A DNA stretch of 43,035 nt, taken from NCBI GenBank assembly GCA_019244745.1, contig JAFASF010000126.1, forward strand, positions 1 to 43,035, in the 5' to 3' direction. The stretch is from Solirubrobacterales bacterium. Its GTDB lineage: Bacteria; Actinomycetota; Thermoleophilia; Solirubrobacterales; Solirubrobacteraceae. Below are positions 10,226-43,035 of this stretch, piece after piece. The notes beneath the pieces are model-generated. The model was not told where the DNA came from, ran no database searches, and saw nothing but the letters and a program-made list of their open reading frames with translations. The position numbers and the translations under genes are program-made. Numbering within the stretch: position 1 is the first letter of the stretch; every line of letters starts with the position of its first letter.

Positions 10226-10257
10226 CAGATTCCTCTCCTTCGACAGGGTTGACGTGC

Positions 10258-10560
10258 CTACGACGAACGGGAAGCCGTGCTGGGGACAAGGTCGCTCCAG
10301 ATCCCGGCCCCACCATGGCCCGCATACGCGAAGGGGTGGTGAAAGACGTCGAGGGGGGACTGACCCTGGCGGACGGCCAACTCGAACGCCTCGCCCGTCT
10401 TCGTGTCGCTGACCGCCACCGACACGCGGTTCTCGCTCGAGTGCCAGAGAAGGCGCACGTCGATCCCGTCGCTCGTGCGGCTGTCAAGCTCGCGTGTCGT
10501 CCTCGCACCCCCAGGCTCGAGGCGATCCGGATTCGAGTGCTGAAGCTGTGAATACATCAT
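10258..10560 (-). CDS. Conserved small protein in the ECF regulon
   Basis: A 100-residue protein of unknown function. It starts MMYSQLQHSN; the core DGIDVRLLWHSSENRVSVAV, then DTKTGEAFELAVRQGQSPLDVFHHPFAYA, looks like a compact beta-rich domain. It has no signal peptide, membrane segment or catalytic motif that I can name. I recall similar short proteins in actinobacteria, but I cannot name the family. The first ATG (10560) is set by GGGAGG 9 nt upstream. It has its own ECF-type promoter 40 nt upstream, and its final codons overlap the promoter of the MFS gene. This arrangement suggests a shared stress or antibiotic response. Confidence 0.75.
   Translation of the reverse strand: MMYSQLQHSNPDRLEPGGARTTRELDSRTSDGIDVRLLWHSSENRVSVAVSDTKTGEAFELAVRQGQSPLDVFHHPFAYAGHGGAGIWSDLVPSTASRSS
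10260..10288 (-). promoter_or_regulatory. ECF sigma promoter A (for MFS gene)
   Basis: On the minus strand: TGTCCCC (-35, 10282-10288), a 16-bp spacer, CGTCGT (-10, 10260-10265). The end of the -10 is 35 nt before the ATG at 10225. Two further copies with the same elements and the same 16-bp spacing precede 10560 and 12185. TGTC at -35 and CGTC at -10 match the style of promoters known for ECF41/ECF42-type sigma factors. Confidence 0.8.
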
Positions 10561-10599
10561 GTTCGTTGTCCTCCCGGAACGTTTGACCTCCATGTCCAC

Positions 10600-10628
10600 A
10601 CGACGAACGGGAGGGCGCCGCGGGGACA
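10600..10628 (-). promoter_or_regulatory. ECF sigma promoter B (for small conserved gene)
   Basis: On the minus strand: TGTCCCC (10622-10628), 16-bp spacer, CGTCGT (10600-10605), followed 40 nt later by the ATG at 10560. The spacer shares its last bases (CCCGTT) with copy A. It is one of three copies in 2 kb. Confidence 0.8.
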
Positions 10629-10686
10629 GCTCACGGTGGGCGCCGGCGTGATGGCACCTGGCCGCGCCGGCCGGCGACGGGAGCGA

Positions 10687-24773: not shown

Positions 24774-26404
24774 CCAACGTGCTCTCGCAGACTCCGGAGA
24801 CACCCGGGGGCCAAGCCGCCGTACCCGGCAAGGTGTTTCGATCGGAGCTGAACCCTGTGGACTTCCTTCATAGGACGGCGTACATGTATCCCACGAAGAT
24901 CGCGGTCGTGGAGGGAGAGCGACGCTTCTCCTACGCGCAGCTCGCGGAGCGATCCTGGCGACTGGCCAACGCTCTGCGCTCGGCCGGGCTACGCAAGGGG
25001 GACCGCGTCGCGACGCTGCTCTTCAACTCATCGCCAATGCTCGAGGCTCATCACGGAGTGCCGGCCGCCGGCGGAATTCTGGTCGCGGTCAACAACCGCC
25101 TCTCGAGCGACGAGATCGGATACATCCTCGAGCACAGCGGCGCACGTTTCCTGCTGCTCGACACCGAACTGGAGCCTCTAGTCGCGCCGCTCGAGCTCCC
25201 CGGCGTGACCATGATCCGCTCCGTGAACGAAGGGGGCCCCGGCGACCCCTACGAGGAGTTCCTGGCCAACGCATCCCCCGAGGTGCCGGCGAGCTGGCTG
25301 GAGCACGAGGAGGAAACGATCTCGATCAACTACACCTCTGGGACAACGGGACGTCCCAAGGGCGTTCAGTACACCTACCGCGGCGCCTACCTCAATGCGC
25401 TTGGCGAAGTCGTTCACGCCGGTATGGGGACCGACTCGGTGTACCTCTGGACGCTGCCGATGTTTCACTGCAACGGCTGGTGTTTCCCGTGGGCGGTGAC
25501 CGCGGTCGCCGCCCGACATGTGACACTCAAGGCCGTAGACCCCGAACTCGTCTGGAAGCTGATCGACGAGGAGGGGGTAACCCATTACAACGGCGCACCC
25601 ACCGTGCAGCTCATGATCATCAACCACGCCAAGGCACACCGATTGGAGCAGCCGGTAACAGTGATGGTGGCCGCCGCCCCGCCCTCGCCCACCCTGTTCG
25701 CCCGGATGCGCGAGCTCAACTTCCGCGTTGTGCACGTGTACGGCTTGACCGAGACGTACGGTCCGGTCACCGTATGCCCCGACCAGCCGGCGTGGCGGGC
25801 ACTACCGCTCGAGCAGTACGCCAAGCTGCTGGCGCGCCAGGGACAGGGCTACATCTCCTCCGATCTGGTGCGTGTGGTCGACGAACAGATGAACGACGTC
25901 CCCCAGGACGGTGAGACGATGGGCGAGGTGCTGATGCGCGGCAACAACGTGATGAGCGGCTACCTCAATGACGACGCGGCCACGAACAAGGCGTTCGCCG
26001 GGGGCTGGTTTCACTCAGGAGACCTCGCCGTGTGGCATGAGGACGGGAACATCGAGCTACGAGATCGGGGAAAGGACGTCATCATTTCTGGCGGCGAGAA
26101 CATCTCGAGCATCGAGGTCGAGCAGACGATCGTTGCTCATCCCGCAGTGCTCGAGTGTGCGGTGGTCGGCATTCCGCACGAGTTCTGGGGCGAGCGGCCC
26201 AAGGCGTTTGTCACGCTGAAGGACGGGCCACAGCCCACGGCGGAGGAGATCATCGCCTTCTGTCGCGAGCGCCTGGCCCACTACAAGTGCCCCGACGCGA
26301 TCGAGTTCGGCCCACTCCCCAAGACATCCACCGGCAAGGTGCAGAAGTTCGTGCTGCGCGAACGCGAGTGGGCAGGTCGCGACAAGCGCATCGGCGCGGC
26401 TTGA
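24770..26404 (+). CDS. Acyl-CoA synthetase / AMP-dependent ligase
   Basis: A 544-residue ANL-superfamily enzyme. The ATP-binding P-loop INYTSGTTGRPKG lies at about residues 185-197, VYGLTETYGPVTVCP is the A5 region, GWFHSGDLAVWHEDGNIELR the A7 region, DVIISGGENISSIEVEQTI the A8 hinge and LPKTSTGKVQKFVLRERE the A10 lysine. The overall shape is that of medium/long-chain or aromatic acyl-CoA ligases (FadD-like). It adenylates a carboxylic acid and transfers it to CoA. Overlap with the FAD oxidase gene upstream and a ferredoxin reductase 46 bp downstream suggest a lipid or aromatic-acid pathway. Confidence 0.93.
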   Translation: MTNVLSQTPETPGGQAAVPGKVFRSELNPVDFLHRTAYMYPTKIAVVEGERRFSYAQLAERSWRLANALRSAGLRKGDRVATLLFNSSPMLEAHHGVPAAGGILVAVNNRLSSDEIGYILEHSGARFLLLDTELEPLVAPLELPGVTMIRSVNEGGPGDPYEEFLANASPEVPASWLEHEEETISINYTSGTTGRPKGVQYTYRGAYLNALGEVVHAGMGTDSVYLWTLPMFHCNGWCFPWAVTAVAARHVTLKAVDPELVWKLIDEEGVTHYNGAPTVQLMIINHAKAHRLEQPVTVMVAAAPPSPTLFARMRELNFRVVHVYGLTETYGPVTVCPDQPAWRALPLEQYAKLLARQGQGYISSDLVRVVDEQMNDVPQDGETMGEVLMRGNNVMSGYLNDDAATNKAFAGGWFHSGDLAVWHEDGNIELRDRGKDVIISGGENISSIEVEQTIVAHPAVLECAVVGIPHEFWGERPKAFVTLKDGPQPTAEEIIAFCRERLAHYKCPDAIEFGPLPKTSTGKVQKFVLREREWAGRDKRIGAA

Positions 26405-26450
26405 GAATCCGGGTGCTTGCGTTCACTGAACCGAAGCGTAGGAGGGATCG

Positions 26451-27692
26451 ATGACCACACAGAGCTTTGTAATCGTTGGCGCTGCCCTGGCCGGCGGTAA
26501 GGCCGCCGAAGAGCTGCGCAGCGAAGGGTTCGACGGCAAGGTGTTCCTGATCGGCGAAGAGCCCGAGCTCCCCTACGAGCGCCCGCCGCTGAGCAAGGAG
26601 TACCTCCGCGGGGAGGCACCGCGCGAGAAGGCGTTCGTGCACCCCCCGGAGTACTACGCCGAGCAGGAGATCGATCTCCTGGGCGAGACTCCGGTGACCG
26701 CGATCGATCCCGGACGCTCGCGAATCTCGCTGGCGGACGGGGGCGAGCTCTCGTACGACCGACTGCTGCTCGTCACCGGGGCCGCGCCGCGCCAGATCTC
26801 GGTCCCGGGCGCGGATCTCGACGGCGTCTGCTACCTGCGCACGTTCGCCGACTGCGACCTGCTGCGGGAGCGCCTCAAGGAAAGCGAGCGCGTGGTGGTC
26901 GTCGGTGCTGGCTGGATCGGAGCCGAGGTCGCCGCATCGGCGCGGCAGCTCGGCGCGAAGGTCTCCGTGGTCGAGCCTATGAAGGTGCCGCTCGAGCGCG
27001 TACTCGGCCCGGAGCTGGGCGCCTTCTACCGTGACGTGCACCTCGAACACGGCGTCGAGTTTCTCCTCGGCACCGGCGTCGAGGCGTTTGAGGGCGACGG
27101 CTCGGTCCAGCGCGTGAGGACCAGCGACGGGCGCTCGCTCGAGTGCGATTTCGTGGTGGTGGGAATCGGCGTGACCCCACGGGTGGAGCTGGCCGAGGCC
27201 GCTGGCCTCGAGATCGACGACGGGATCGCGGTCGACCAGTCGCTGCAGACGAGTGCCCCGGGTGTGTTCGCCGCCGGTGACGTCGCCAACGCCTGGCACC
27301 CTTTCTACGACCGGCGGATCCGCATCGAGCACTGGGCCAACGCGCTGAACCAGGGTCCCGCGGCGGCCCGCGCGATGCTCGGCCGCGACACCGTCTACGA
27401 CCGCACGCCGTATTTCTTCTCAGACCAGTACGACGTCGGGATGGAGTATCGCGGGTATGCCTCCGACTGGGACCAGGTCGTGTTCCGAGGCGATCCCGCG
27501 AGCCGCGAGTTCATCGCGTTTTGGCTGAGAGCGGGAACGGTACTCGCGGGAATGAACGTCAACATCTGGGACGCCGGCGACCAGATCGCCGCCCTGGTCC
27601 GACACCGAGCGCCGGTTGACGCGCGCCGCTTGAGCGATCCCGATACGGCGCTCGACGAGCTCGCGCCCGCCGATGTTCACCAGGCTCCTTGA
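26451..27692 (+). CDS. Ferredoxin reductase-type FAD/NAD(P) oxidoreductase
   Basis: A 413-residue pyridine-nucleotide-disulfide-family reductase without the redox disulfide. The FAD motif is FVIVGAALAGGKAAEELR, followed by LPYERPPLSKEYLRG typical of rubredoxin/ferredoxin reductases. The NAD motif is VVVVGAGWIGAEVAASARQL, and TSAPGVFAAGDVANAWHPFY closes the FAD site; a C-terminal reductase domain (about 325-410) follows. Such enzymes pass electrons from NAD(P)H to a ferredoxin that feeds P450s or oxygenases; a cytochrome P450 lies 9 kb away, but no ferredoxin gene is visible. GGAGGGATCG precedes the ATG. It is probably co-transcribed with the ligase. Confidence 0.92.
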   Translation: MTTQSFVIVGAALAGGKAAEELRSEGFDGKVFLIGEEPELPYERPPLSKEYLRGEAPREKAFVHPPEYYAEQEIDLLGETPVTAIDPGRSRISLADGGELSYDRLLLVTGAAPRQISVPGADLDGVCYLRTFADCDLLRERLKESERVVVVGAGWIGAEVAASARQLGAKVSVVEPMKVPLERVLGPELGAFYRDVHLEHGVEFLLGTGVEAFEGDGSVQRVRTSDGRSLECDFVVVGIGVTPRVELAEAAGLEIDDGIAVDQSLQTSAPGVFAAGDVANAWHPFYDRRIRIEHWANALNQGPAAARAMLGRDTVYDRTPYFFSDQYDVGMEYRGYASDWDQVVFRGDPASREFIAFWLRAGTVLAGMNVNIWDAGDQIAALVRHRAPVDARRLSDPDTALDELAPADVHQAP

Positions 27693-32172: not shown

Positions 32173-33615
32173 ATGACGACCGAACCGGAGACCGAGCAGG
32201 GCCCGGCGCTTCCGCTCCCGGATCGCGAGCGAGTGCTCGAGCACGCTGAGGAGCTCATCCTCTCCGCCTGGCGCAGCTTCGACCGTTTCCGTCCCCATCA
32301 GCCTCTTCCCGACGACCGGCATCTCGAGCTGCTGAGCGCTCCCGTCCCCACCGCTCCGTCAGACCCGATCGCGGCGCTCGACGCCGCTGCCGACGTGCTC
32401 GACGTCTCGATCGCGCAGACCCGACCGCGCTTCTTCGCCTACATCGGGTCATCGGGCCTGGAGATCGGGGTGCTCGCCGACGCTCTGATGGCCTCACACG
32501 ACGTGAACGTCGCGGTCAGCTCCGGAGCGGCGGACCTGCTCGAGGCCCAGACGGTCCGGTGGGTGGGGCAGTTCGTGGGGTTCGACGACGAGGCCGGCGG
32601 GCTGGTGGCGTCCGGAGGGACGATCTCGAACTTGACCGCCCTGACCGCCGCTCGCGAGCGTGCGATTCCCGGATTCCGCCACGAGGGTGCGGGCGGACGG
32701 CGTATGGCGCTGTACTGCTCGGCCGAGGCCCACTACTCGGTCCGCAGGGCGGCGGAGGTGCTGGGCATCGGTGGAAACCAGGTGCGCGGGATCGAGCTTG
32801 ACTCAGAGCGCCGGATGGCCATCACCGCCTGCGCGCAGGCGATCGACCGAGATCGCCGGGCGGGCATGGTTCCGGTCGCGGTGGTGGCCACCGCGGGGAC
32901 GACGCTGACCGGCGCCGTCGACGACCTCGAGGGATTGGCCGATGCGTGTGCCGAGCGCGACGTGTGGCTGCACGTAGACGGCGCCTACGGGCTGCCCGCT
33001 GCGGCCACCCGGACGGCCGCCCACCTCTTCAAAGGGCTGTCGCGAGCCGACTCCGCGACCGTCGACGCTCACAAGTGGCTCTACGTCCCCAAGGCCTGCA
33101 GCGTCCTGCTGGTGCACGATCTGGCGGCGCTGGAGCACGCCTTCTCGCATCACGAGGGTTACCTGCCTCACGGCGAGCAGCTGCATGCCGTCGACCGCAC
33201 CCTCGAGTACTCCCGCCCGCTGAATGGGTTGAAGCTCTGGCTCGCCTTCACCGTGCACGGCGCCGATGCCATCCGCACCGCCGTCGAGCGCAACCTCCAC
33301 GAGGCCCAGCTGCTCGCGTCGCTGCTCGCTGGAGACGAGCGCTTCGAGCTGTTCGCCGAACCGCAGCTCTCCGCGGTGTGCTTCCGCCGCCGGACCCCCA
33401 CAGGGCTCTCGCCGGACGCGGTCAACGAGGCGCTGGCGCGCGCGGTCGCAGCGGACGGGAGGATCCTGCTCGCGCCCGCCGAGGTCGACGGCCGCATCTG
33501 GCTGCGGGCGTGCTTCGTCAACCACCGCACCACCGACGGGGATGTCTACGCGATCCCGGAGGTCGTGGGAGAGCTGTCGGAGACTATGGCCGGCACGGCC
33601 GAGGTGCGGCGGTGA
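32173..33615 (+). CDS. PLP-dependent group II amino acid decarboxylase
   Basis: A 480-residue decarboxylase of the aromatic-amino-acid/glutamate type. The PLP residues are visible: His187 in AEAHYSVRRAAEVLG (ring stacking), Asp269 in WLHVDGAYG, and the Schiff-base Lys301 in VDAHKWLYVPKACS. The N-terminal segment (PRFFAYIGSSGLEIGVLADA) and SGGTISNLTALTAAR are typical of this family. It converts an L-amino acid to its amine and CO2, probably an aromatic or acidic one. The ATG at 32173 has a G-rich leader. Its stop overlaps the start of an aldehyde dehydrogenase gene (GTGA), so the two are co-translated, linking amine production or use to aldehyde oxidation. Confidence 0.9.
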   Translation: MTTEPETEQGPALPLPDRERVLEHAEELILSAWRSFDRFRPHQPLPDDRHLELLSAPVPTAPSDPIAALDAAADVLDVSIAQTRPRFFAYIGSSGLEIGVLADALMASHDVNVAVSSGAADLLEAQTVRWVGQFVGFDDEAGGLVASGGTISNLTALTAARERAIPGFRHEGAGGRRMALYCSAEAHYSVRRAAEVLGIGGNQVRGIELDSERRMAITACAQAIDRDRRAGMVPVAVVATAGTTLTGAVDDLEGLADACAERDVWLHVDGAYGLPAAATRTAAHLFKGLSRADSATVDAHKWLYVPKACSVLLVHDLAALEHAFSHHEGYLPHGEQLHAVDRTLEYSRPLNGLKLWLAFTVHGADAIRTAVERNLHEAQLLASLLAGDERFELFAEPQLSAVCFRRRTPTGLSPDAVNEALARAVAADGRILLAPAEVDGRIWLRACFVNHRTTDGDVYAIPEVVGELSETMAGTAEVRR

Positions 33616-35132
33616 GTGGGCGGGCGGTCAGCCAGGCGCGCGGCCGGGTCGACGTCGAGGGCGTGAGCGTGCCCCTCGAGCACTTCATCGAGGGCCGGCG
33701 TGTCCGCTCCGAGGAGCGCTTCGAGGTTCGCAGCCCGATCGATTGGGACGGGTGGAAGCTCGCCGACGTCGCGGCCGGCGGGCGGCTCGAGGTCGACGCC
33801 GCTGTCGCCGCCGCCCGCCGCGCATTTCCGGCGTGGGCGGCGATGGGACCGGAAGGACGCCACTCGGTCCTCGCCCGGCTGGCCGATGCGATCGACGCCG
33901 AGGTCCCCGTGCTGGCAAGAGTAGAGACCGTCGACAACGGCTCCCTCTACGAGGCCATGCGCTTGCGCGTCCTGCCGCGCGCCGCCAACAACCTGCGCTT
34001 CTTCGCCGATTACGCCGTCGAGCGCCTCGGGGAGCCGGATCGCACGCTCCCCGGCGGCGAACGCAACCGGGTCCGGTACGACCCCTGCGGGGTGGTGGCG
34101 GTCTCGACGCCATGGAACGCGCCCTTTATGCTCGCGACCTGGCGCGTGGGACCGGCGCTCGCCGCCGGCAACACGGTGGTGCTCAAGCCCCCCGATTGGG
34201 CGCCGCTGACCTGTTCATTGCTCGGCGAAATAGCCAATCAAGCGGGACTGCCGCCCGGGGTCCTGAACATCGTCCACGGCACGGGCATCGGCGCCGGCGC
34301 GCCGCTCACGGGTCATCCCGGAGTCGACCGAGTGGCGTTCACCGGCTCGCCGACGACGGCGCGAATCGTCTACGGCGACGCCGCGCCTAATCTCGTGCCG
34401 GTGTCACTCGAGCTCGGCGGCAAGTCGCCGTTCATCGTGTTCGAGGACGCGGACCTCGACGCGGCCGCGGGCACCGCGAGCTACCAGTACGACAACTCCG
34501 GCCAGGTTTGCCTCGCGGGCACGCGTCTCCTGGTCCAGAGCTCGGTCCTGGACGACTTCCTCGAGCGGTTCAAGGCCCGCGTCGGGGAAATCCGAGTCGG
34601 TGATCCACGCGAGGCGGAGACGACGTACGGACCCCTGATTCACCCGGTCGCGCTCGAGCGGGTGACCGGTCACGTGGAGCGGGCGATCGCCGCCGGCGCG
34701 CAGCTCGCGTTCGGCGGCCACTCGCTCGGCGGCCTGTACTACGCGCCGACCCTGTTCGTCGATGTTCCGAACTCGGCCGAGATTCTTCAGCGCGAGGTGT
34801 TCGGTCCGGTGCTGACGCTCCAGAGCTTCGACGATGAGGCCGAGGCCATCCGGCTGGCGAACGCCACCGAGTACGGCCTCGCCGCCACCGTCTACACCCG
34901 CTCCGAAGCCCGCGCGGACCGGGTCAGCGCGTCGGTCGTGGCGGGCACCGTGTGGGTCAATTGCTTCTATGTCCGCGACCTCGAGACGCCTTTCGGGGGT
35001 GCCCGGCATTCGGGAATAGGGCGCGAGGGCGGCCGCCACTCGTTCGACTTCTACTGCGATGTCAAGACCGTATGCGAGCGCACGGTGCTGTTCACCGGCG
35101 GGGATACCGGGTCCGGCTCGTCAGCTGAATGA
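33612..35132 (+). CDS. NAD(P)-dependent aldehyde dehydrogenase
   Basis: A 506-residue ALDH with full-length architecture. The substrate and cofactor sequences are VVAVSTPWNAPFMLATWRVG, VVLKPPDWAPLTC and FTGSPTTARIVYG. The catalytic Glu267 lies in VSLELGGKSPF and the nucleophile Cys300 in NSGQVCLAGTRLLV. C-terminal motifs REVFGPVLTLQSF and TPFGGARHSGIGREGG are present. It oxidises an aldehyde to an acid; the group resembles semialdehyde dehydrogenases of aromatic degradation (HpaE-like). The start is GTG, sharing GTGA with the decarboxylase stop. The 3' end overlaps the convergent LLM gene by 12 bp. Confidence 0.93.
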   Translation: MSGRAVSQARGRVDVEGVSVPLEHFIEGRRVRSEERFEVRSPIDWDGWKLADVAAGGRLEVDAAVAAARRAFPAWAAMGPEGRHSVLARLADAIDAEVPVLARVETVDNGSLYEAMRLRVLPRAANNLRFFADYAVERLGEPDRTLPGGERNRVRYDPCGVVAVSTPWNAPFMLATWRVGPALAAGNTVVLKPPDWAPLTCSLLGEIANQAGLPPGVLNIVHGTGIGAGAPLTGHPGVDRVAFTGSPTTARIVYGDAAPNLVPVSLELGGKSPFIVFEDADLDAAAGTASYQYDNSGQVCLAGTRLLVQSSVLDDFLERFKARVGEIRVGDPREAETTYGPLIHPVALERVTGHVERAIAAGAQLAFGGHSLGGLYYAPTLFVDVPNSAEILQREVFGPVLTLQSFDDEAEAIRLANATEYGLAATVYTRSEARADRVSASVVAGTVWVNCFYVRDLETPFGGARHSGIGREGGRHSFDFYCDVKTVCERTVLFTGGDTGSGSSAE

Positions 35133-36079: not shown

Positions 36080-37339
36080 CTAGTCGGGTGCGACCGCGAT
36101 TGGCAGGTGCCTCAGTCCGTTGGCGAAGTTCGAACGCAGCCGCACCGGATCGCCGGCGAGCTCGATCCGCGCCACCCGGGAGACCAGCTCCTCGAGGTAC
36201 ACCCGCACTTCGAGCCGCGCGAGGTGAGCGCCGAGGCAGTGGTGTGGCCCTCCCCGCCCGAACGTGAGCTGGTCGGTGGGGTTGCGCCCGATGTCGAGGC
36301 GATGGGGATCGGGATAGTGCTCGGGATCGCGGTTGGCGGCTGCGAACCACACCACGACCTTGTCGCCGGCGGCGATCTCGGTGCTCCGCACCGTCACCGC
36401 CTTGGTCGCGGTGCGCCGGAAGAACCACACCGGCGAGGAGTAGCGCAGCAGCTCCTCGACCGCGGACGGGATCAGGGTCGGGTCGGCCCGCAGTCGTGCG
36501 TACTGGTCGGGGTTGCGGGCCAGGGCCAGGGTGCCGAGGCTGATCGCCTGCCGGGTGGTCTCGTTGCCGGCGACGATCAGGAGGGCGAACGTGTTGTCGA
36601 GGTCGCGCTGGGACAGCGGCTGGCCCTCGATCTCCGCGCGGGCCAGCAGCGTGAGGACGTCATCGCGCGGGCAGGCGCGCCGGTCGGCGTAGAAAGCCCG
36701 CCCGATCTGGCACATCTCGTCGGCCCAGGGCGAGCCGAACGGCTTGTAGCGATCCTCCTCGCGCTCGGCCGCGAACGCCAGCTCGCCCACGAGCGCTGGG
36801 TCGGTGTCGACGAGCAGACGGTCTCCGAGCTCGATCAGGTGAGGGAGGATCTCCTCGGGCAGGCCCAGCACGTGGGCCAGGACCCGGATCGGGATCGGCG
36901 CCGCGAGCTCGCGCGCGAGGTCGAACGACCCCGTCGGCAGCGTACGCTCGAGCAGGTTCGTGATCAGCGCGCGGAGCCACTCCTCGTAGCGGCCGACCGC
37001 GCCCGGCGTGAAGTTCGTGGAGATCAGCCGCCGGTAGCGGCCGTGCTTGGGAGGGTCAAACTCGAGAAAGTTTCGCCGAGCGTCGAGGACATCCTCGGGC
37101 AGGTCCTCGATCGTCGCCGCGCCGCCGACCTCGGAAGAGAACGTCTTGGGATCGCGCAGCACCGCGAGGACGTCGTCGTACTTGGTCAGCGCCCAGAACC
37201 CGCGACCCTCGGGCTCGGGGTGGAAATAGACCGGCGCCTCGCGCTGGAGGCGATCGAACACCTCCCACGGCTCGTGGTCGGCGAACAGGTCGTGGTCGAG
37301 GAGATCGACCGAGGTGAGGTCCGCCGCGCTCGCTCCCAT
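36080..37339 (-). CDS. Cytochrome P450
   Basis: A 419-residue soluble bacterial P450. The I-helix oxygen-activation motif is AGNETT (257-262), the K-helix ExxR is Glu296-Arg299 in EELLR, and the heme loop FGRGGPHHCLG has the thiolate Cys368. The C-helix region PKHGRYRRLISTNF is typical. It resembles mycobacterial CYP124/125/142-like enzymes that oxidise sterol side chains or branched lipids, but the substrate cannot be fixed from sequence alone. The ATG at 37339 has a poor ribosome-binding site; the longer upstream reading enters a repeat array and is rejected. Electron partners may include the ferredoxin reductase at 26.5 kb. Next to it is an LLM oxidoreductase. Confidence 0.92.
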   Translation of the reverse strand: MGASAADLTSVDLLDHDLFADHEPWEVFDRLQREAPVYFHPEPEGRGFWALTKYDDVLAVLRDPKTFSSEVGGAATIEDLPEDVLDARRNFLEFDPPKHGRYRRLISTNFTPGAVGRYEEWLRALITNLLERTLPTGSFDLARELAAPIPIRVLAHVLGLPEEILPHLIELGDRLLVDTDPALVGELAFAAEREEDRYKPFGSPWADEMCQIGRAFYADRRACPRDDVLTLLARAEIEGQPLSQRDLDNTFALLIVAGNETTRQAISLGTLALARNPDQYARLRADPTLIPSAVEELLRYSSPVWFFRRTATKAVTVRSTEIAAGDKVVVWFAAANRDPEHYPDPHRLDIGRNPTDQLTFGRGGPHHCLGAHLARLEVRVYLEELVSRVARIELAGDPVRLRSNFANGLRHLPIAVAPD

Positions 37340-37586: not shown

Positions 37587-39110
37587 ATGGCAACTGAGGC
37601 TGTCGGCGGATCGGCAGGCGCGCTCGGCGGAGCGTCACGTGAGCACCTGGGGGCGGCGCACCTGACCACCACGCACGCGATCGGCCAGGCGCTGGCAATC
37701 GGGCCGATCTTCTCGGTGGGCCTGGTGAGCGGGTTGGTCGCGCACGTGGCGGGCTACTCGACCCCGATCTCGATCCTCCTCGGTTGCATTGGATCGCTGG
37801 GACTCGGCTACGTGATCGCGATCTATGCCCGTCGCTATGCCGGCGCCGGCGCGATCTTCGAGTATCTCTCTCAGGCCGTTCACAACTCGTTCGGGATCTT
37901 CTCCGCCGGCGTGTACTTCCTCGGCACGCTGTTCCTCGGGGCCGGCGGGATCTACATCGGGCTGGGGTTTCTCATCCAGGGGTTCTTTCAGACCCACATC
38001 CACACCACGATCCCGTGGTGGACGGGCGGCGCCGTCTGCCTGGCGATCGCGTTCCTGCTCAACCACTTCGGGGTGCGGCTGGCGATTCGCGGGGTCCTGA
38101 CCCTTGCCTGCGTGTCGACGATCCCGTTCCTGATCCTCGCGGTGGTGATCATCGCCAAGGGCGGCGTCGGCGGGAACACCCTGAGCGTGTTCAACCCGAA
38201 CGTGACCTCGTGGAACACGGTGTTCAACGGGATCCTGTTCGCGGTGACGCTGTTCATCGGGTTCGAGGCGGCGGCGTCGATCGCCGAGGAGACCGAGAAC
38301 CCGCGCAAGTCGATCCCGATCGCGGTCGTCGGCGCCGTGGCGCTCAGCGCGGCGCTCTACCTGCTCGTCACCTACGCCGCGACGATCGGCTTCGGCAAGG
38401 CCGCGCTGGCCAAGGACGCCTGGTTCTCCGCCCCCAGTCCGATGGGAGTGCTCGCCACCACCTACGTCGGCAAATGGCTGAGCGTGCTGATCGATCTCGT
38501 GATCATCTTCGCCGCGCTGTCGCTCGGCATCGCGATCATGGTGACGGCCTCGCGGATCATCTTCGCGCTCGGCCGCGACGGGCTGCTCCCCAAGGTCGCC
38601 GCACGGACCTCGCGCTACGACACGCCGGTCGTCGGCAACCTTGTGATCGTCGTCTGGAGCGCGGCGCTGCTCGTGTGGGCGGGGACCACCAACTACGGCA
38701 AGACGGTCCCGCTGCCCAACCCGATCGAGGCGTTCAACATCACCACGGCGGCGGGGAGCTATCTCGTCGAGCTGATCTATGTGTTCCTCGCGATCTTCGC
38801 GCTGAAGCTGCTGTGGGACAGCCGCCACGACGAACGCGGCCTGTGGTGGAAGGTGATCGCGGTGCTGCTCGGCCTGGCGACGCCGATCCTCGCGTTCAAG
38901 GGCGCGCTCGATCCGTTTCCGACCTTCCCCAACAACCGCGGCGTGTTCTTCGCGATCGGGTGCATCGTGCTCTCGGCGGTCTGGTACGGGATCCTCCACT
39001 TCACGCGTCCGCGGCAGGTGCGCCTCGCCGCTCGCCACGCCGTCGAGCACGAGGGGGTGCCGGCGCTCGACGAGCCGATCCCGCTGCCCGCCGACGCCGG
39101 CTCAAGCTGA
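37587..39110 (+). CDS. APC-family amino acid/amine permease
   Basis: A 507-residue membrane transporter of the amino-acid/polyamine/organocation superfamily. It starts LGAAHLTTTHAIGQALAIGP and has about 12 hydrophobic helices, including VAHVAGYSTPISILLGCIGS, FGVRLAIRGVLTLACVSTIP and the family-typical FIGFEAAASIAEETENPRKS at about residue 222-241 (TM6 region: GFE-A-EE-NP). It imports amino acids or amines with protons. AAGGAGAGG precedes the ATG. Neighbours on both sides encode a decarboxylase, ALDH, P450 and a gamma-glutamyl ligase-like enzyme, so its substrate is probably the compound these enzymes process. Confidence 0.92.
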   Translation: MATEAVGGSAGALGGASREHLGAAHLTTTHAIGQALAIGPIFSVGLVSGLVAHVAGYSTPISILLGCIGSLGLGYVIAIYARRYAGAGAIFEYLSQAVHNSFGIFSAGVYFLGTLFLGAGGIYIGLGFLIQGFFQTHIHTTIPWWTGGAVCLAIAFLLNHFGVRLAIRGVLTLACVSTIPFLILAVVIIAKGGVGGNTLSVFNPNVTSWNTVFNGILFAVTLFIGFEAAASIAEETENPRKSIPIAVVGAVALSAALYLLVTYAATIGFGKAALAKDAWFSAPSPMGVLATTYVGKWLSVLIDLVIIFAALSLGIAIMVTASRIIFALGRDGLLPKVAARTSRYDTPVVGNLVIVVWSAALLVWAGTTNYGKTVPLPNPIEAFNITTAAGSYLVELIYVFLAIFALKLLWDSRHDERGLWWKVIAVLLGLATPILAFKGALDPFPTFPNNRGVFFAIGCIVLSAVWYGILHFTRPRQVRLAARHAVEHEGVPALDEPIPLPADAGSS

Positions 39111-39173
39111 GCCGCGCGGTCGTCTCCTAGCCGCGCCGCGCGGTCGTCTCCCAACCGCGCCGCGCGGTCGTCT
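39111..39173. repeat. Three 24-bp tandem repeats between convergent genes
   Basis: GCCGCGCGGTCGTCT recurs exactly at 39111, 39135 and 39159, period 24 bp, filling the whole 61-bp gap between the permease stop and the flavin-reductase stop. Each unit contains the self-complementary CCGCGCGG. It might act as a bidirectional terminator or be an expanded spacer. Confidence 0.9.
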
Positions 39174-39708
39174 ACCACCCGGCGCCCTCTACCAACGCGA
39201 TGGGGTGTCCGGGCGGCACGGCGGCATCCGCCACCAGTCCCCCGAAGCGCCCTCGATGGAAGATCAGGGGCTCGCCGCCATGGTGGGTGATCCCGACCAC
39301 GATCCCGAGCACGAGGTCGTGATCTCCGGCCCGGACCACTTGGCGCAGAATGCACTGAAGCGTGGCGGCCGCACCCGCCACGACCATGAAGCCGTCGTAG
39401 GCGCGGGTCACGTGGCGCCGCGGGAACGGCGCGCCGGCGGTGGCGAAGTCGATGGCCACCTCGCGCTGCTCGCGGCCGAGCACGCTGATCGTAAAGCGCC
39501 CGCTCGCCTGCACCGCGTACAGCGTTCGCGAGCCGTGGCCGAGCGACACCAGCACGAGCAGCGGATCGAGCGACACCGACGCGAAGGAGTTGAGCGTCAT
39601 CCCGGCCGCCTCGCCATCGTGCTCGGCGATCACGACGGTTACGCCGGTCGCGAACTCGCCGGCGCAGTCGCGATACGCGCGCGGCGGAATTGCGGATCCG
39701 TCACTCAC
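39172..39708 (-). CDS. Flavin reductase (HpaC-type, FMN/FAD)
   Basis: A 178-residue flavin reductase-domain protein of standard length. AYRDCAGEFATGVTVVIAEH, then GMTLNSFASVSLDPLLVLVS, GRFTISVLGREQREVAIDFA and DHDLVLGIVVGI match the family from end to end. It reduces free flavin with NAD(P)H for use by a separate monooxygenase. The gene is last in the overlapping operon that begins with the HpaB-type monooxygenase, the natural partner. The GTG start at 39708 overlaps the stop of the glutamine-synthetase-like gene (GTGA). Confidence 0.9.
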   Translation of the reverse strand: MSDGSAIPPRAYRDCAGEFATGVTVVIAEHDGEAAGMTLNSFASVSLDPLLVLVSLGHGSRTLYAVQASGRFTISVLGREQREVAIDFATAGAPFPRRHVTRAYDGFMVVAGAAATLQCILRQVVRAGDHDLVLGIVVGITHHGGEPLIFHRGRFGGLVADAAVPPGHPIALVEGAGW

Positions 39709-41078
39709 AGCCGCGGCGCGTACTCCGCGAACTCCCAGTCGGTCACCCAGGCGTTGAATCGCTCGAGCTCGGCCGCCTTGATCGTCTTGAACGTCTCGAC
39801 CAGCTTCTCGCCCACGCCCTCCGCGATCACCGGATCGTCCTCGAGCGCGGCCAGGGCCCGCTCGAACGACACCGGCAGCGCCTCGCCCAGCATCTCCTCG
39901 GGCAGCTCGTAGATCATGCCCTCCAGGGGCTCGGGAGGCTCGAGCTCGCGCCGGATGCCGTCGAGCCCGGCCGCGAGCGCCGCGGTGTAGGCCAGGTATG
40001 GGTTGGCGGTGCCGTCGCCGAGGCGGATCTCAACACGGGTTCCAGGACCGCGGTCCTTGGGGACCCGGACCAGCGTCATCCGGTGATCGTGGCCCCAACA
40101 GCAGCGGGTCGGCACCAGCGCCTCGGCGCTGATCCGCCGGTACGCGTTGACCGTCGGATTGAAGAACCCCATCATCGCGGGAGCGTGGTCGAGCACGCCG
40201 GCGATGAAGTGGCGGGTGATCGCAGTCAGCCCCTGCGCGCCGGCAGGGTCCTCGCACGCGTTGGCGCCATCGCCGTCCACGAGCGAGATGTGCAGGTGGA
40301 GACCGGAGCCCTCGTCGTCGTTGAATGGCTTGCCAATGAACGTGGCCAGGAGTCCGTCGCGCGCGGCCAGCTCCTTGACCAGCGCCTTGTAGCGAAACGC
40401 CCGGTCGGCGGAGTCGAGGGCCAGCGTGTGCCGGAGGTTGATCTCGAACTGGCTCCGGCCGTATTCGTGGGCCGCGGCGATCGCTCCCAAGCCCAGCTCC
40501 ACCGCGGCGTCGAGCATGCGCGAGAGCGTCCCCTTCGGATCGGCCACCTCGCCGACCGTGTAGACGGGGCTCTCCTGGCGGGCATACGCTCGATAGCCGT
40601 TCGGCGCGGAGGCGTCGGCCTCGCAGAGGTAGAACTCGAGCTCGGGCGCGATTACCGGCGAGACCCCGAGCCCGGCGAACTCCGCGAGCGTGCGCTTCAA
40701 CGCGCCTCTCGAGTCCACCGGCCACGGCTCGTGGGTCACGGGATCTTCGAGATCGACGATGCACGCCGCCACGCCCGGCTGCCACGGGAGGCGCACGAGC
40801 GTGTTCAGGTCCGGCCGGGCGAGGAGGTCGGGGAAGCCCTCCTCGAATCCCGCGATCACGTTGTGGGCGAGGTCGACGGTCATGGTCGCGGCCACGAAAC
40901 CGATGCCCTCCTCGGCCGCGTGGGCGAACGCCGAGCTCGGGATGTCCTTGCCGCGGCAGACGCCGTGCAGGTCGGCGTACTGGAGCCGCACGGCGCGGAT
41001 GCCCACCTCGCTCAGGTCCGCGAGGCTGCCCGCCAGATCGCCGCCTGCGGCCGCGCGCGCGTCGAGATCGTGGCTCAT
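39705..41078 (-). CDS. Glutamine synthetase-like gamma-glutamyl ligase
   Basis: A 457-residue GS-I-fold protein. The N-terminal beta-grasp begins VGIRAVRLQYADLHGVCRGK. The metal and ATP site motifs are present: VIAPELEFYLCE, HEYGRSQFEINLRHT, EGSGLHLHISL, NPTVNAYRRI and VEIRLGDGTANPYLAYTAAL. Members outside the true GlnA group glutamylate amines such as putrescine, isopropylamine or aniline. Placement in an operon with a monooxygenase, SDR and flavin reductase, and beside a permease, favours such a catabolic role over nitrogen assimilation. No GlnB or nitrogen-control gene is nearby. Its ATG overlaps the SDR stop (ATGA). Confidence 0.9.
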   Translation of the reverse strand: MSHDLDARAAAGGDLAGSLADLSEVGIRAVRLQYADLHGVCRGKDIPSSAFAHAAEEGIGFVAATMTVDLAHNVIAGFEEGFPDLLARPDLNTLVRLPWQPGVAACIVDLEDPVTHEPWPVDSRGALKRTLAEFAGLGVSPVIAPELEFYLCEADASAPNGYRAYARQESPVYTVGEVADPKGTLSRMLDAAVELGLGAIAAAHEYGRSQFEINLRHTLALDSADRAFRYKALVKELAARDGLLATFIGKPFNDDEGSGLHLHISLVDGDGANACEDPAGAQGLTAITRHFIAGVLDHAPAMMGFFNPTVNAYRRISAEALVPTRCCWGHDHRMTLVRVPKDRGPGTRVEIRLGDGTANPYLAYTAALAAGLDGIRRELEPPEPLEGMIYELPEEMLGEALPVSFERALAALEDDPVIAEGVGEKLVETFKTIKAAELERFNAWVTDWEFAEYAPRL

Positions 41079-41887
41079 GACTCTCCTCTGAGTTCCGGGT
41101 GTGCGAAGGCCAGCGTACCCACGTCGACGACGGCGGCGCCACCGTCGACCGTGAGCACCGCGCCGTTGACGTACGAGGCCGCGGGGGACGCCAGCCAGGC
41201 GATCGCCTCGGCGGCCTCTTCTGCGGCGCCGGCGCGTCCCGCGGGAACCTCGGTGTGGGCGAGCGTGTACGCGCCCTCGCGGTCGGTCCCGCGCTCGGCG
41301 CCGAGCTCGTCCATGGCCGCGTCGGCCATCGGGGTGCGGATCCAGCCCGGGCACACGCAGTTGGCGCGGATCCCGGCTCGCGCGTAGTCGAGCGCGATGC
41401 ACTGGGTGAGCATGATCAGCCCCGCCTTGGAAGCGCAATAGGCCGCCGACGCGGGGTCGGCGCGCAACCCCGCGAGGGAGGCCACGGTCACGATCGCGCC
41501 ACGTGATTCGGCGAGCAGGGGGAGCGCCGCCTGGCAGGCGAGAAACGCGCCGGTCAGATTCGTCGCCAAGACCCCGTTCCAGCGCTCGAGCGTCTGCTCC
41601 ACGACCGTCCCGGACGCGCCCACGCCCGCGCTCACCACGAGCGCGTCGAGCCGCCCGAAGCGCTCGACGCACCGCTCGACCGCGTGCCGCGCGTCCCCGG
41701 GATTGCTGGTGTCGACCGCGACCCAGCTCCCGCCGACCTCGCCGGCGACCTGCTCGAGCGGCTCTCGCCGGCGGCCGGCCACGCACACCCGGTAACCGTC
41801 GCGCGCCATCCGCCGAGCCACCGCCGCGCCAATGCCCGTGCCGCCCCCCGTGATCAGCACGCTCGGAGTCGGCGCGCGTTCCTCCAT
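41075..41887 (-). CDS. Short-chain dehydrogenase/reductase (classical SDR)
   Basis: A 270-residue classical SDR with all key parts: cofactor motif GGGTGIG (residues 14-20), the NAD-type VSAGVG, NLTG, and the catalytic Ser137, Tyr150 and Lys154 (VASLAG ... YCASK). The C-terminal PGWIRTPMADAAMDEL and YVNGAVLTVDGGAAVVDVG are usual. The Arg pair in VCVAGRRREP after strand 2 suggests NADP(H). It interconverts an alcohol and a ketone or aldehyde in the same pathway as its operon partners. The ATG shares one base with the HpaB stop, and its stop overlaps the ligase start. Confidence 0.92.
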   Translation of the reverse strand: MEERAPTPSVLITGGGTGIGAAVARRMARDGYRVCVAGRRREPLEQVAGEVGGSWVAVDTSNPGDARHAVERCVERFGRLDALVVSAGVGASGTVVEQTLERWNGVLATNLTGAFLACQAALPLLAESRGAIVTVASLAGLRADPASAAYCASKAGLIMLTQCIALDYARAGIRANCVCPGWIRTPMADAAMDELGAERGTDREGAYTLAHTEVPAGRAGAAEEAAEAIAWLASPAASYVNGAVLTVDGGAAVVDVGTLAFAHPELRGES

Positions 41888-43035
41888 CAGTCGCGCAGGA
41901 ACTGCTCGACCAGCGACTCGGCAAACGCCTTGTCGGCGAGCTGGTAGGCGAGCGCGGTCATCCGCCAGGAGTCGGAGAGGTAAAAGCGCTCATAGAGCTC
42001 ACCGCGTCCGCCCAGCTCGGAGCCGAGGAAGTCCCAGGCGAGGCGAAACAGGCGGATCCGGCGTTCGGCGCCGGCGCCCGCGGCCTGGAAGTACTGCTCG
42101 ATCTGCTCGCGGAGCGGACCGTCGACGTCTGCCTTGGCAGGGGTGGCCATGAACCCGCCCCCGCCGATCAGCTGCAGGAATTCGTTGCAACGCGGCAGCC
42201 ACTTCGGCATCTCCCCGCGGAGGGCCAGGAAGGGGCGGTCGTCGGGGTACATGACTCCGCCTTCGTCCAGCGACGCGCCCGCTTCGGCCGCCACCATCGC
42301 GGAGCGGGCGAGCTCGCACATCGCCCAGATCTGGCCGAGCTTCTCCTGGATGTGGTCGAACCGCACGACGCCAGTGGTGTTCGCGATCACGTGGCCGAGG
42401 CCGAAGGCGAAGCAGAGCTTGACGTACGCGCGGGTGAACGCCTGGTGCATGATGTGACCGCGCCAGCCGGTGTCCGAGATCACCTCGCTGTAGCCGATCG
42501 TGTCCCCGTCCAGGAACACTCGCTCCTTGGGGATCTCGACGTCGTCGAAGATCACCACCGCGTCCATCTCGTCGAAACGCGAGGACAACGGGTAGTCGTA
42601 GCCGTCGCGCTGCTTGGAGTAGCTGTCACGGCAGATGAAGCGCAGACCGGGAGTGGCGATCGGCACCGCGAACGAGAGGGCGTAGCGGCCATCCTGGGGT
42701 CGGATGTCCGAGCCCGGGTAGATGAGCAGCTCGTCGGCGAACGGTGCCAGCGTGGCCAGCATCCGGGCCCCGCGCACGACGATCGAATCCGAGGTGTCAC
42801 CGACCTTGTGGAGGGCCACCTGCCCCATCGCCTGCTCGGCCTCGGGCTTCGTGCGGTCGACCTGCGGGTTCATCAGCGCGTGCGTAGTCGAGAGGTCGCG
42901 GTCGCGCATGTAGGCCTGGTAGGCGACGAGGTTGGCGGCGCCCTGCTCGTTGCCGCGCCGCGCCCACACGTCCGGGCGGCCGGCGAAACAGGCGAAGGTG
43001 ACGTTCAGGTAGTCGGGGGTTCGCCCCATCACGCC
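41887..43035 (-). CDS. hpaB: HpaB-type FADH2-dependent aromatic monooxygenase (5' end beyond window)
   Basis: The window holds 382 codons of the C-terminal part of a 4-hydroxyphenylacetate 3-monooxygenase oxygenase-family protein (family about 480-520 residues); the frame is open to the right edge, so roughly 90-110 N-terminal residues are missing. The start of the visible part, GRTPDYLNVTFACFAGRPDV, and the FAD-site signature STTHALMNPQVDRTKPE are typical, as are YDYPLSSRFDEMDAVVIFDD and the C-terminal FYLSDSWRMTALAYQLADKA. The enzyme uses reduced flavin from a partner reductase to ortho-hydroxylate a phenol (or to attack related aromatics). It heads the operon ending in the flavin reductase at 39172-39708. 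Confidence 0.92.
   Translation of the reverse strand, partial: GVMGRTPDYLNVTFACFAGRPDVWARRGNEQGAANLVAYQAYMRDRDLSTTHALMNPQVDRTKPEAEQAMGQVALHKVGDTSDSIVVRGARMLATLAPFADELLIYPGSDIRPQDGRYALSFAVPIATPGLRFICRDSYSKQRDGYDYPLSSRFDEMDAVVIFDDVEIPKERVFLDGDTIGYSEVISDTGWRGHIMHQAFTRAYVKLCFAFGLGHVIANTTGVVRFDHIQEKLGQIWAMCELARSAMVAAEAGASLDEGGVMYPDDRPFLALRGEMPKWLPRCNEFLQLIGGGGFMATPAKADVDGPLREQIEQYFQAAGAGAERRIRLFRLAWDFLGSELGGRGELYERFYLSDSWRMTALAYQLADKAFAESLVEQFLRD

What the first reader, a model, noticed from the sequence alone, without database searches (positions are those of the whole stretch)
39172..43035. Four-gene overlapping operon joins HpaB/HpaC hydroxylation with a glutamine-synthetase-like ligase
Seen: HpaB-type oxygenase, SDR, GS-like ligase and flavin reductase overlap by 1, 4 and 4 bp, so they are translated as one unit. 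Known: HpaB needs the reduced flavin made by HpaC-type reductases; GS-like enzymes of the PuuA, IpuC and aniline-oxygenase systems glutamylate amines. Inferred: an aromatic amine or phenolic amino-acid derivative is gamma-glutamylated and hydroxylated, with the SDR handling an alcohol/ketone step. I do not know a described pathway with this exact gene set.
Basis: partly seen in the sequence, partly recalled or inferred. Interest (0 to 1): 0.8.

Follow-up and report, generated by a model that had tools for sequence, protein, structure and literature searches.

The report
Glutamate-tagged aromatic amine breakdown pathway
This gene cluster most likely lets soil bacteria eat tyramine- or dopamine-like amines by first tagging them with glutamate and then opening the aromatic ring, a route for which I found no description and which recurs in several bacterial phyla.

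Summary
The operon is real, and its overlaps are 1, 4 and 4 bp as stated. But the window ends inside the HpaB-type gene. The next contig of the same genome completes it and adds a fifth overlapping gene, an HpaD-like extradiol (ring-opening) dioxygenase. Around it lie relatives of HpaE and HpaG, a MppR-like acetoacetate-decarboxylase-family (ADC) protein, a permease, a P450 and a PLP decarboxylase.

The GS-like protein has lost both ammonia-handling residues of glutamine synthetase (Asp50, Glu327; kept in 0 of 78 and 0 of 80 relatives) but keeps the metal-binding residues. HpaB keeps its catalytic triad but lacks the residues that hold 4-hydroxyphenylacetate. In 60 of 80 related loci, from four phyla, GS lies near an extradiol dioxygenase plus at least two of ALDH, FAH and ADC; none of 20 GS paralogue loci has such a dioxygenase.

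Best reading: gamma-glutamylation of a phenethylamine-type amine (tyramine/dopamine), catechol formation, meta-cleavage with the glutamyl tail kept on, and release as gamma-glutamyl-aminobutyraldehyde, the PuuC/PuuD substrate. Hydrolase relatives (PuuD-like or GATase) occur in 49 of 80 loci, PuuC-like genes in 7; neither is linked here. The substrate is inferred, not shown. Six keyword searches of an open-access library found no matching paper.

The parts
39172..39708 (-). Flavin reductase (HpaC-type partner), GTG start, overlaps GS by 4 bp
   Evidence: PF01613 E 5.5e-34; best NCBIfam FerA, HsaB, HpaC-type, all below cut-off; overlap; family in 5 of 80 loci
39705..41078 (-). GS-like gamma-glutamyl-amine ligase (457 aa), overlaps SDR by 4 bp
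   Evidence: PF00120 E 8.2e-96; Asp50->Val, Glu327->Leu, metal-site residues kept; clade 100/99 apart from GlnA
41075..41887 (-). Short-chain dehydrogenase (SDR), role unknown
   Evidence: PF13561/PF00106; SDR family in 12 of 80 loci
41887..43035 (-). HpaB-type flavin monooxygenase, C-terminal part; the N-terminal 105 residues are on contig C313 (L007:148-462)
   Evidence: HpaB_N/HpaB; full length 487 aa; triad kept, tail-binding loop YPGSDIR
37587..39110 (+). APC amino-acid/amine permease, convergent with the operon
   Evidence: PF13520; PERM family in 12 of 80 loci, a second APC family in 28 of 80
36080..37339 (-). Cytochrome P450 (start codon estimated), part of the wider conserved set
   Evidence: PF00067; family in 63 of 80 loci, mean 48% identity
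35121..36041 (-). LLM-class (TIGR03619, F420-type) oxidoreductase (start estimated)
   Evidence: TIGR03619 above cut-off; in 8 of 80 loci
33645..35132 (+). HpaE-like ring-fission-aldehyde dehydrogenase (start estimated)
   Evidence: HpaE best NCBIfam, 510 bits, cut-off 638; in 64 of 80 loci
32173..33615 (+). PLP decarboxylase, group II (aromatic-amino-acid/diaminobutyrate decarboxylase type)
   Evidence: PF00282; best NCBIfam diaminobutyrate decarboxylase, far below cut-off; nearest solved chain 4obu, then DOPA and other group II decarboxylases; family in 15 of 80 loci
26451..27692 (+). Ferredoxin reductase, possible electron supplier of the P450 (tentative, about 8 kb from it)
   Evidence: PF07992+PF14759; 360 bits to the FdR family of related clusters

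Best explanation
A catabolic pathway for phenethylamine-type amines (tyramine/dopamine class) in which the amine is first gamma-glutamylated. Proposed steps: (1) the amine is imported by the permease or made by the PLP decarboxylase; (2) the GS-like ligase joins glutamate to the amine with ATP; (3) HpaB with its flavin reductase (P450 with ferredoxin and reductase in clusters without HpaB) makes the catechol; (4) the HpaD-like dioxygenase opens the ring; (5) HpaE-like ALDH, FAH (HpaG-like) and the ADC-family protein oxidise, decarboxylate and split off pyruvate. With a CH2CH2NH-Glu side chain in place of CH2COOH, the homoprotocatechuate route ends not in succinic semialdehyde but in gamma-glutamyl-gamma-aminobutyraldehyde; (6) PuuC-like and PuuD-like (or GATase) enzymes turn that into GABA and give the glutamate back. 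The tag would stop the free amine from cyclising onto the carbonyls made by ring opening. Shown by sequence: gene set, linkage, residue changes. Inferred: every reaction, the exact substrate, the end product.
For: GS-like: Asp50 kept in 0 of 78 and Glu327 in 0 of 80 relatives, while E129, E131, E212, E220, H269, R321, R339, R344, R355, E357 and R359 are kept in 79-80 of 80; loss of the catalytic Asp50' and of the flap Glu is described for glutamyl-organic-amine synthetases, which do not use ammonia (PMC11335346, passages). Linkage: of 80 GS loci 64 have the ALDH, 60 FAH, 57 ADC, 63 P450 and 63 an extradiol dioxygenase, either VOC (43) or LigB type (20), never both. Of 20 GS paralogue loci none has P450, FAH, ADC, VOC, LigB, HpaB or the PLP decarboxylase. 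Bacillota loci L109 and L116: HpaB, ALDH, LigB, GS and PuuD in a row, no P450 in the fetched stretch; L109 also has the flavin reductase. HpaB: R100/Y104/H142 kept in 10 of 10; S197/T198, which hold the 4-HPA carboxylate in Thermus HpaB (PMC10537072, passages), are Gly/Ser in 10 of 10, and the loop is YPGSD(I/L)R in 11 of 11 against FPST in a Deinococcus hpa operon and 5 other HpaBs. HpaH and HpaI are found in none of 81 sequences, in which HpaE is found in 65. Hydrolase relatives (PuuD-like 28, GATase 30; 49 of 80 with either) keep the Cys in 28 of 28 and 30 of 30; a PuuC-like ALDH, 46-52% identical to E. coli PuuC, is in 7 loci, next to PuuD in 5 of them.
Against: No biochemistry. PuuC-like genes are in only 7 of 80 loci and PLP decarboxylases in 15 (19 with a second family that I read as decarboxylase). 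Of 60 well-covered loci 16, this one included, have no linked hydrolase; this genome has PuuD-family genes on three other contigs and GATase plus PuuC-like genes on C132 and C329, none shown to belong to the pathway. The P450 is present together with HpaB in 6 of the 7 well-covered HpaB loci, so it is not simply a replacement for HpaB; 5 of 60 well-covered loci have neither, among them Aneurinibacillus L118. HpaB is in only 10 of 80 loci. Puu-type genes also occur at control GS loci (PuuD 2, PuuC 2, APC 2, GATase 1 of 20 at 150 bits; GATase 3 at 80 bits). The SDR, LLM and CMD genes have no assigned step. The ADC step rests on family behaviour only. The residue tests argue against the textbook substrates but do not identify tyramine.
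Confidence: 0.6

Rival explanations
1. Same logic, different amine: the ligase tags a ring-bound or benzylic amine (anilines, aminophenols, benzylamines) or a beta-hydroxylated amine (octopamine, synephrine), and the pathway ends in something other than GABA.
For: GS-like aniline and naphthylamine enzymes are the described aromatic precedents, and they too have a GATase-like partner; the VOC dioxygenase scores almost equally as HpaD and catechol 2,3-dioxygenase (115 and 111 bits) and its best PDB matches are not HpaD; P450 and SDR could act on the side chain, as a GS-SDR-hydrolase-P450 set on a Paenarthrobacter plasmid suggests.
Against: No Rieske oxygenase on the 139,613-base S. canus plasmid that carries a near-complete cluster; eight other carriers were searched: six genomes have Rieske matches, nine of the 13 matches were checked and lie outside the cluster loci, the other four (Conexibacter arvalis) lie outside the locus by position. 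LigB and ALDH are nearest to HpaD_Fe and HpaE, enzymes of a para-substituted catechol, though below cut-off; PuuC-like genes and the PLP decarboxylases fit a two-carbon side chain better.
Confidence: 0.25
2. The GS-like enzyme belongs to a polyamine or alkylamine (Puu-type) function that merely sits beside a separate 4-hydroxyphenylacetate-like operon.
For: PuuC, PuuD and APC genes are classical Puu partners, and 3 of 20 control GS loci carry some of them (L151, L153, L162).
Against: Here the GS gene overlaps SDR and flavin reductase by 4 bp each, within one operon with HpaB; in 60 loci the nearest core gene is a median 51 bases away (between homologous segments) and on the same strand in 49; linkage recurs in four phyla with two non-homologous dioxygenases; HpaB lacks the 4-HPA tail site.
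Confidence: 0.08
3. Detoxification or assembly function: the ligase protects the cell from reactive catecholamines, or the cluster makes a natural product, as ADC-family MppR does.
For: ADC best NCBIfam match is the biosynthetic MppR (below cut-off); the S. lunaelactis plasmid locus has an NRPS gene about 12 kb from its GS gene.
Against: Permease, FAH proteins, ALDH and hydrolase look catabolic; among the representative sequences of families seen in 5 or more loci I recognised no NRPS or PKS (read by eye).
Confidence: 0.07

Closest known systems
4-Hydroxyphenylacetate / homoprotocatechuate (hpa) meta-cleavage pathway
   Same: HpaB-like hydroxylase, flavin reductase, HpaD-like (VOC or LigB) dioxygenase, HpaE-like ALDH, HpaG-like FAH; a MarR whose best family is HpaR in 16 of 20 LigB loci
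   Different: Own HpaB, HpaD and HpaE relatives score below the NCBIfam cut-offs (424/480, 115/321, 510/638) that a Deinococcus hpa operon passes (863, 387, 815); no HpaH/HpaI, an ADC-family gene instead; a GS-like ligase added; 4-HPA tail-binding residues lost
Puu putrescine pathway (PuuA, PuuC, PuuD of E. coli)
   Same: Logic: glutamylate the amine, oxidise, release as gamma-Glu-GABA; PuuC-like and PuuD-like genes in related loci
   Different: GS-like is only 30.5% identical to PuuA; aromatic ring cleavage in place of PuuB; no family of 5 or more loci was labelled PuuB
Aniline / 1-naphthylamine dioxygenase systems (AtdA, TdnQ, NpaA1)
   Same: GS-like ligase plus GATase-like protein, then ring oxidation of the glutamylated amine (PMC11335346, passages)
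   Different: Flavin monooxygenase and/or P450 in place of the Rieske dioxygenase; in the proposed route the glutamyl group stays on past ring cleavage
GS/P450 cluster on Paenarthrobacter ureafaciens plasmid pA
   Same: GS-like, SDR, PuuD-family hydrolase, P450, ferredoxin, reductase, ALDH, class III aminotransferase, APC permease
   Different: No annotated aromatic hydroxylase, dioxygenase, FAH or ADC in that stretch; the GS is 34% identical. That such plasmid sets handle alkylamines is recalled, not from a call

Membership tests
Glutamyl-organic-amine synthetase (GoaS) class | Loss of the GS ammonia residues Asp50' and the flap Glu | tested here: met
   0 of 78 Asp50, 0 of 80 Glu327 (Leu in 78). 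The paper passage prints the flap residue as Glu357; Glu327 is the number I recall, and the position I one search is kept in 80 of 80
Glutamyl-organic-amine synthetase (GoaS) class | Metal, glutamate and ATP residues of GS retained | tested here: met
   E129, E131, E212, E220, H269, R321, R339, R344, R355, E357, R359 in 79-80 of 80; against: Asn264 is Gly in 60, Glu in 12, and Tyr179 is Val in 72 (PuuA differs at both too). Residue roles recalled
Glutamyl-organic-amine synthetase (GoaS) class | Extra N-terminal motif (15th motif) of most GoaS members | not tested
   named in a passage of PMC11335346
Glutamyl-organic-amine synthetase (GoaS) class | ATP-dependent ligation of glutamate to an organic amine | not testable with these tools
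   needs enzyme assay
True glutamine synthetase | Asp50 and Glu327 present | tested here: not met
   also below NCBIfam cut-offs: GlnA 299 of 429, type III 316 of 470 bits
4-hydroxyphenylacetate 3-hydroxylase (HpaB) | Arg100-Tyr104-His142 triad | tested here: met
   10 of 10
4-hydroxyphenylacetate 3-hydroxylase (HpaB) | Ser197/Thr198 that hold the 4-HPA carboxylate | tested here: not met
   Gly/Ser in 10 of 10 cluster HpaBs; FPST in the Deinococcus HpaB and 5 of the other 11 comparison proteins not counting L168
4-hydroxyphenylacetate 3-hydroxylase (HpaB) | NCBIfam equivalog cut-off TIGR02309 480.2 bits | tested here: not met
   own full length 423.9, Brevibacillus locus 459.6, Deinococcus control 863.1
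Homoprotocatechuate 2,3-dioxygenase (VOC HpaD) | Fe ligands H155, H214, E267 and second-sphere N157, H200, H248, Y257 | tested here: met
   Aligned to own H142, H197, E249, N144, H183, H229, Y238; roles of H200, H248, Y257, the rest recalled
Homoprotocatechuate 2,3-dioxygenase (VOC HpaD) | Arg243 that binds the HPCA carboxylate | tested here: not met
   Position is an invariant Trp (own W224) in 20 of 20; the role of Arg243 is recalled, no paper found; Arg293 lies outside the alignment and was not tested
hpa catabolic operon | HpaH hydratase and HpaI aldolase | tested here: not met
   0 of 81 sequences at E 1e-5 with Deinococcus queries; ADC family in 57 of 80 loci
Aniline-dioxygenase type cluster | Rieske oxygenase in the cluster | tested here: not met
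   Family PF00848 sought in 9 genomes or records: matches in 6, none on the S. canus plasmid; 9 of 13 matches checked against the fetched loci, none inside, the other 4 outside by position
Puu-type release | PuuD-family hydrolase with catalytic Cys/His | tested here: inconclusive
   28 of 80 loci, Cys in 28 of 28, His in 27 of 28 (one gap); not linked in this genome

The most novel reading that the evidence does not exclude
A previously undescribed, multi-phylum route that degrades tyramine, dopamine and phenethylamine entirely as gamma-glutamyl conjugates: aromatic meta-cleavage run on a glutamate-tagged substrate and joined to the Puu pathway at gamma-glutamyl-aminobutyraldehyde, with an ADC-family enzyme replacing both HpaH and HpaI.
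Probability: 0.5. Interest if true: 0.85.

Novelty: new variant of a known kind. Interest (0 to 1): 0.76.

Why it matters
It would add another way, beside amine oxidase, for bacteria to use biogenic aromatic amines, and would explain why GS-like and HpaB/HpaD/HpaE-like genes travel together in Actinomycetota, Acidobacteriota, Thermomicrobiota and Bacillota. It predicts substrates for enzymes that now carry names such as glutamine synthetase family, 4-HPA hydroxylase and acetoacetate decarboxylase family protein, and the search named carriers from strain collections (Solirubrobacter soli, Conexibacter arvalis, Kibdelosporangium philippinense, Neobacillus massiliamazoniensis, Streptomyces canus) in which it can be tested.

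Tried and rejected
Rejected: the idea that the operon ends with HpaB (the next contig carries the dioxygenase). Rejected: P450 as a plain substitute for HpaB everywhere (both occur together in 6 of 60 well-covered loci). Rejected: an aniline-type Rieske system. Considered: SDR for an alcohol/ketone step; left open. Literature: nine paper searches were answered. Six bore on whether such a pathway is in print; they are keyword searches, and one search listed 15 of 15,773 papers. None of the listed titles describes gamma-glutamyl-tyramine or -dopamine catabolism; the 10 papers were judged by title and start of abstract only. sought the ADC family, and 55 residue roles. The morpholine/P450/GS precedent that I recalled found no paper. 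Promoter/terminator scan gave one weak promoter-like site, on the other strand, and no terminator.

Limits of the counts: 3 of 79 fetched loci (L143-L145, partial 37-39% matches) were left out. Many loci are cut by contig ends, so presence counts are lower bounds; some loci come from close relatives, so they are not independent. The first-round loci overlap with those. The HMMs were trained on the cluster loci, so its cluster column holds by construction; its control column is the informative one. L117 carries two GS genes, one of which is counted. Families shown by '.' or C-numbers were not all identified; some names (C16, C18, C19, C36, LysR) are from reading the sequence by eye. The aminotransferase family was not among the HMMs.
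Full report
WHAT IS THERE. The window is the whole of contig C389 of a 4.89 Mb, 463-contig genome (91% complete); the nearest relative of the GS gene in the species-genome scan is from an uncultured Solirubrobacteraceae bacterium (82%, L067). The HpaB frame is open at the window's end. Contig C313 begins with the last 147 bases of the window and continues: the HpaB start (105 residues), then an HpaD-like VOC extradiol dioxygenase overlapping HpaB by one base (TGATG), then divergent CMD and FAH genes, and on the minus strand a GntR/FCD regulator, a class III aminotransferase, a second FAH and an ADC-family (MppR-like) gene. The join is an assembly inference, but the dioxygenase gene lies beside HpaB in 5 of the other 79 loci and L067 carries nearly the whole arrangement on one contig. 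In the window, beyond the operon's 3' end, lie an APC permease, P450, LLM, HpaE-like ALDH and a PLP decarboxylase; the nearest solved chain of the last is 4obu (I recall this as the Ruminococcus gnavus tryptophan decarboxylase).

CONSERVATION. A search of 299 genomes of the class found GS matches at E 1e-60 or better in 64, many of them paralogues; the eight best outside this genome have 54-62% identity. Stretches around 20 of the best were fetched; 17 of 20 carry three or more of the neighbouring families, while L044, L048 and L055 do not. A scan of the species-genome collection returned 79 loci. Of these 76, plus three Streptomyces/Embleya plasmid loci and this one, were compared (80 loci): GS 80, ALDH 64, P450 63, FAH 60, ADC 57, VOC 43, GATase 30, PuuD-like 28, APC 28 and 12, ferredoxin reductase 22, LigB 20, PLP decarboxylase 15, SDR 12, HpaB 10, LLM 8, PuuC-like 7, CMD 6, flavin reductase 5. 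Four more loci have a second PLP family that I read as a decarboxylase (19 of 80 together); in S. lunaelactis it is annotated as an aminotransferase class V-fold enzyme. The two non-homologous dioxygenases never occur together (63 loci with one, 0 with both). Sixty loci have a dioxygenase and at least two of ALDH, FAH and ADC; 55 of them have HpaB or P450, 44 a PuuD-like or GATase gene, and the nearest core gene lies a median 51 bases from GS, on the same strand in 49. Named carriers include Solirubrobacter, Conexibacter, Rubrobacter, Kibdelosporangium, Amycolatopsis, Lentzea and Crossiella (Actinomycetota; Crossiella with ALDH and MarR only), Holophagales and other Acidobacteriota, Thermomicrobium (Thermomicrobiota), and Neobacillus, Brevibacillus and Aneurinibacillus (Bacillota). 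Control: 20 loci around more distant GS paralogues in genomes of the class, one of them this genome, hold none of P450, FAH, ADC, VOC, LigB, HpaB, FdR, PLP decarboxylase; they hold ALDH 1, PuuD 2, PuuC 2, APC 2, SDR 1 and GATase 1 at 150 bits, GATase 3 at 80 bits.

WHAT THE LIGASE IS. Against E. coli GlnA and PuuA the cluster GS proteins lack Asp50 (0 of 78) and Glu327 (0 of 80; Leu in 78), and keep eleven other active-site positions in 79-80 of 80; two more differ (Asn264, Tyr179), as they do in PuuA. NpaA1 and its relatives lack the catalytic Asp50' and the flap Glu, and are reported not to ligate ammonia (PMC11335346, passages seen; the passage names the flap residue Glu357, whereas I use Glu327 from memory). 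A tree of 40 sequences puts all 28 cluster proteins sampled in one clade (100/99), separate from GlnA; its nearest groups are one with PuuA and the Paenarthrobacter protein and one of two control proteins (drawn at the midpoint, PuuA and GlnA are long branches).

WHAT THE HYDROXYLASE AND DIOXYGENASE SEE. HpaB keeps Arg100, Tyr104 and His142 in 10 of 10. Ser197 and Thr198, which bind the carboxyl of 4-hydroxyphenylacetate in the Thermus enzyme (PMC10537072, passages), are Gly and Ser in 10 of 10. The loop reads YPGSD(I/L)R in 11 of 11 cluster HpaBs including L168, whose neighbourhood L180 has FAH, VOC, ADC, SDR and ALDH. It reads FPST in a Deinococcus hpa operon and in five further HpaBs of unknown function (L171-L175). 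Four more comparison proteins (L176, a Rhodococcus and two Thermomicrobium ones) have other loops, and one at 50% (L170, locus L181) has YPGQP and lies with LigB, ADC, FAH, ALDH and PuuC-like genes but no GS nearby. The VOC dioxygenase keeps the iron ligands and second-sphere residues of homoprotocatechuate dioxygenase, but Arg243 is an invariant Trp (the role of Arg243 is recalled). Own HpaB, HpaD and HpaE relatives fall below NCBIfam cut-offs that the Deinococcus operon passes. So the enzymes are sisters of the hpa enzymes that most likely take a substrate without the acetate tail.

PATHWAY LOGIC. In the hpa route the aldolase products are pyruvate and succinic semialdehyde, the latter made of two ring carbons and the two-carbon side chain (established pathway, recalled). 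With a CH2CH2-NH-gamma-Glu side chain the same chemistry gives gamma-glutamyl-gamma-aminobutyraldehyde. That is the substrate of PuuC, and gamma-Glu-GABA that of PuuD (names as annotated for E. coli); relatives of both sit in related clusters (PuuD-like 28 loci, PuuC-like 7, adjacent in L060, L061, L062, L128, L129). HpaH and HpaI are absent from all 81 sequences searched, and an ADC-family protein is present in 57 of 80 loci. This family includes MppR, described as an aldolase that condenses pyruvate with an aldehyde, and two relatives are strongly induced during growth on phenol in Saccharolobus, where however a 2-oxopent-4-enoate hydratase is induced too (PMC7820114, passages). L109 shows the shortest form: HpaB, ALDH, LigB-HpaD, GS, PuuD, flavin reductase; Aneurinibacillus L118 has ADC, ALDH, LigB, GS and PuuD but no HpaB on its 7.7 kb contig. 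S. canus carries PuuD-family and PuuC-like genes, permease, LLM, two P450s, two ferredoxins, reductase, FAH, dioxygenase, ALDH, ADC and GS on one plasmid.

WHAT DOES NOT FIT YET. The P450 sits with HpaB in 6 of 7 well-covered HpaB loci; it may para-hydroxylate phenethylamine or act on the side chain. Five well-covered loci have neither hydroxylase. This locus has no linked hydrolase, though relative L068 has a GATase beside its dioxygenase and ADC, and the genome has candidates elsewhere. SDR, LLM and CMD have no step. The substrate class is inferred from side-chain logic and the decarboxylase, not measured.

REGULATION. The gap between the dioxygenase and CMD holds GGATACAATATCC (L007:1512-1524). 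GGATA-N3-TATCC occurs once each in L007, L067, L130 and L180, in or beside the gap upstream of CMD or FAH, and not in L068, L069 or L071 (4 of 7 loci; L068 has TTGTATACAA). It is a candidate operator of the GntR/FCD protein encoded nearby.

NOVELTY. Each module is known. The combination, with glutamylation kept through ring cleavage, did not come up in six keyword searches of the open-access library; most subscription papers are not held there.

Noticed in passing
L007:1512-1524: Palindrome GGATA-N3-TATCC in the divergent dioxygenase/CMD promoter gap, found once each in 3 more loci at or beside the like place; candidate GntR/FCD operator.
   Followed up: partly
L181 (HpaB 9333-10721): A locus of another genome of the phylum with HpaB (50%, loop YPGQP), LigB, ADC, FAH, ALDH, PuuC-like and flavin reductase but no GS in the 19.9 kb fetched: maybe an untagged or differently tagged version.
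   Followed up: no
L074, L076, L078-L081, L084, L086, L101, L127: In Acidobacteriota MAGs the cluster is preceded by proteins that look like amidohydrolases by eye (C16 in 10, C18 and C19 in 9 loci), hinting that the amine may be released from amides.
   Followed up: no
L085, L087, L088, L091, L092, L102, L131, L132: A histone-deacetylase-domain protein (C21, PF00850 for the L102 member) recurs near GS in 8 of 80 loci, perhaps an N-acyl-amine deacylase.
   Followed up: no
L075, L077, L088, L092, L141: A peptidase M20 family protein (C29; PF01546 for the L088 member) follows the ALDH in 5 of 80 loci; another possible deglutamylase.
   Followed up: no
L166:9634-11830 (own genome, contig C132): GATase-like gene next to a PuuC-like aldehyde dehydrogenase, a possible unlinked end of the pathway; C329 (L167) has a second such pair about 4 kb apart.
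   Followed up: partly
window 24770-27692: AMP-binding ligase followed by a ferredoxin reductase that scores 360 bits with the reductase family of related clusters.
   Followed up: no
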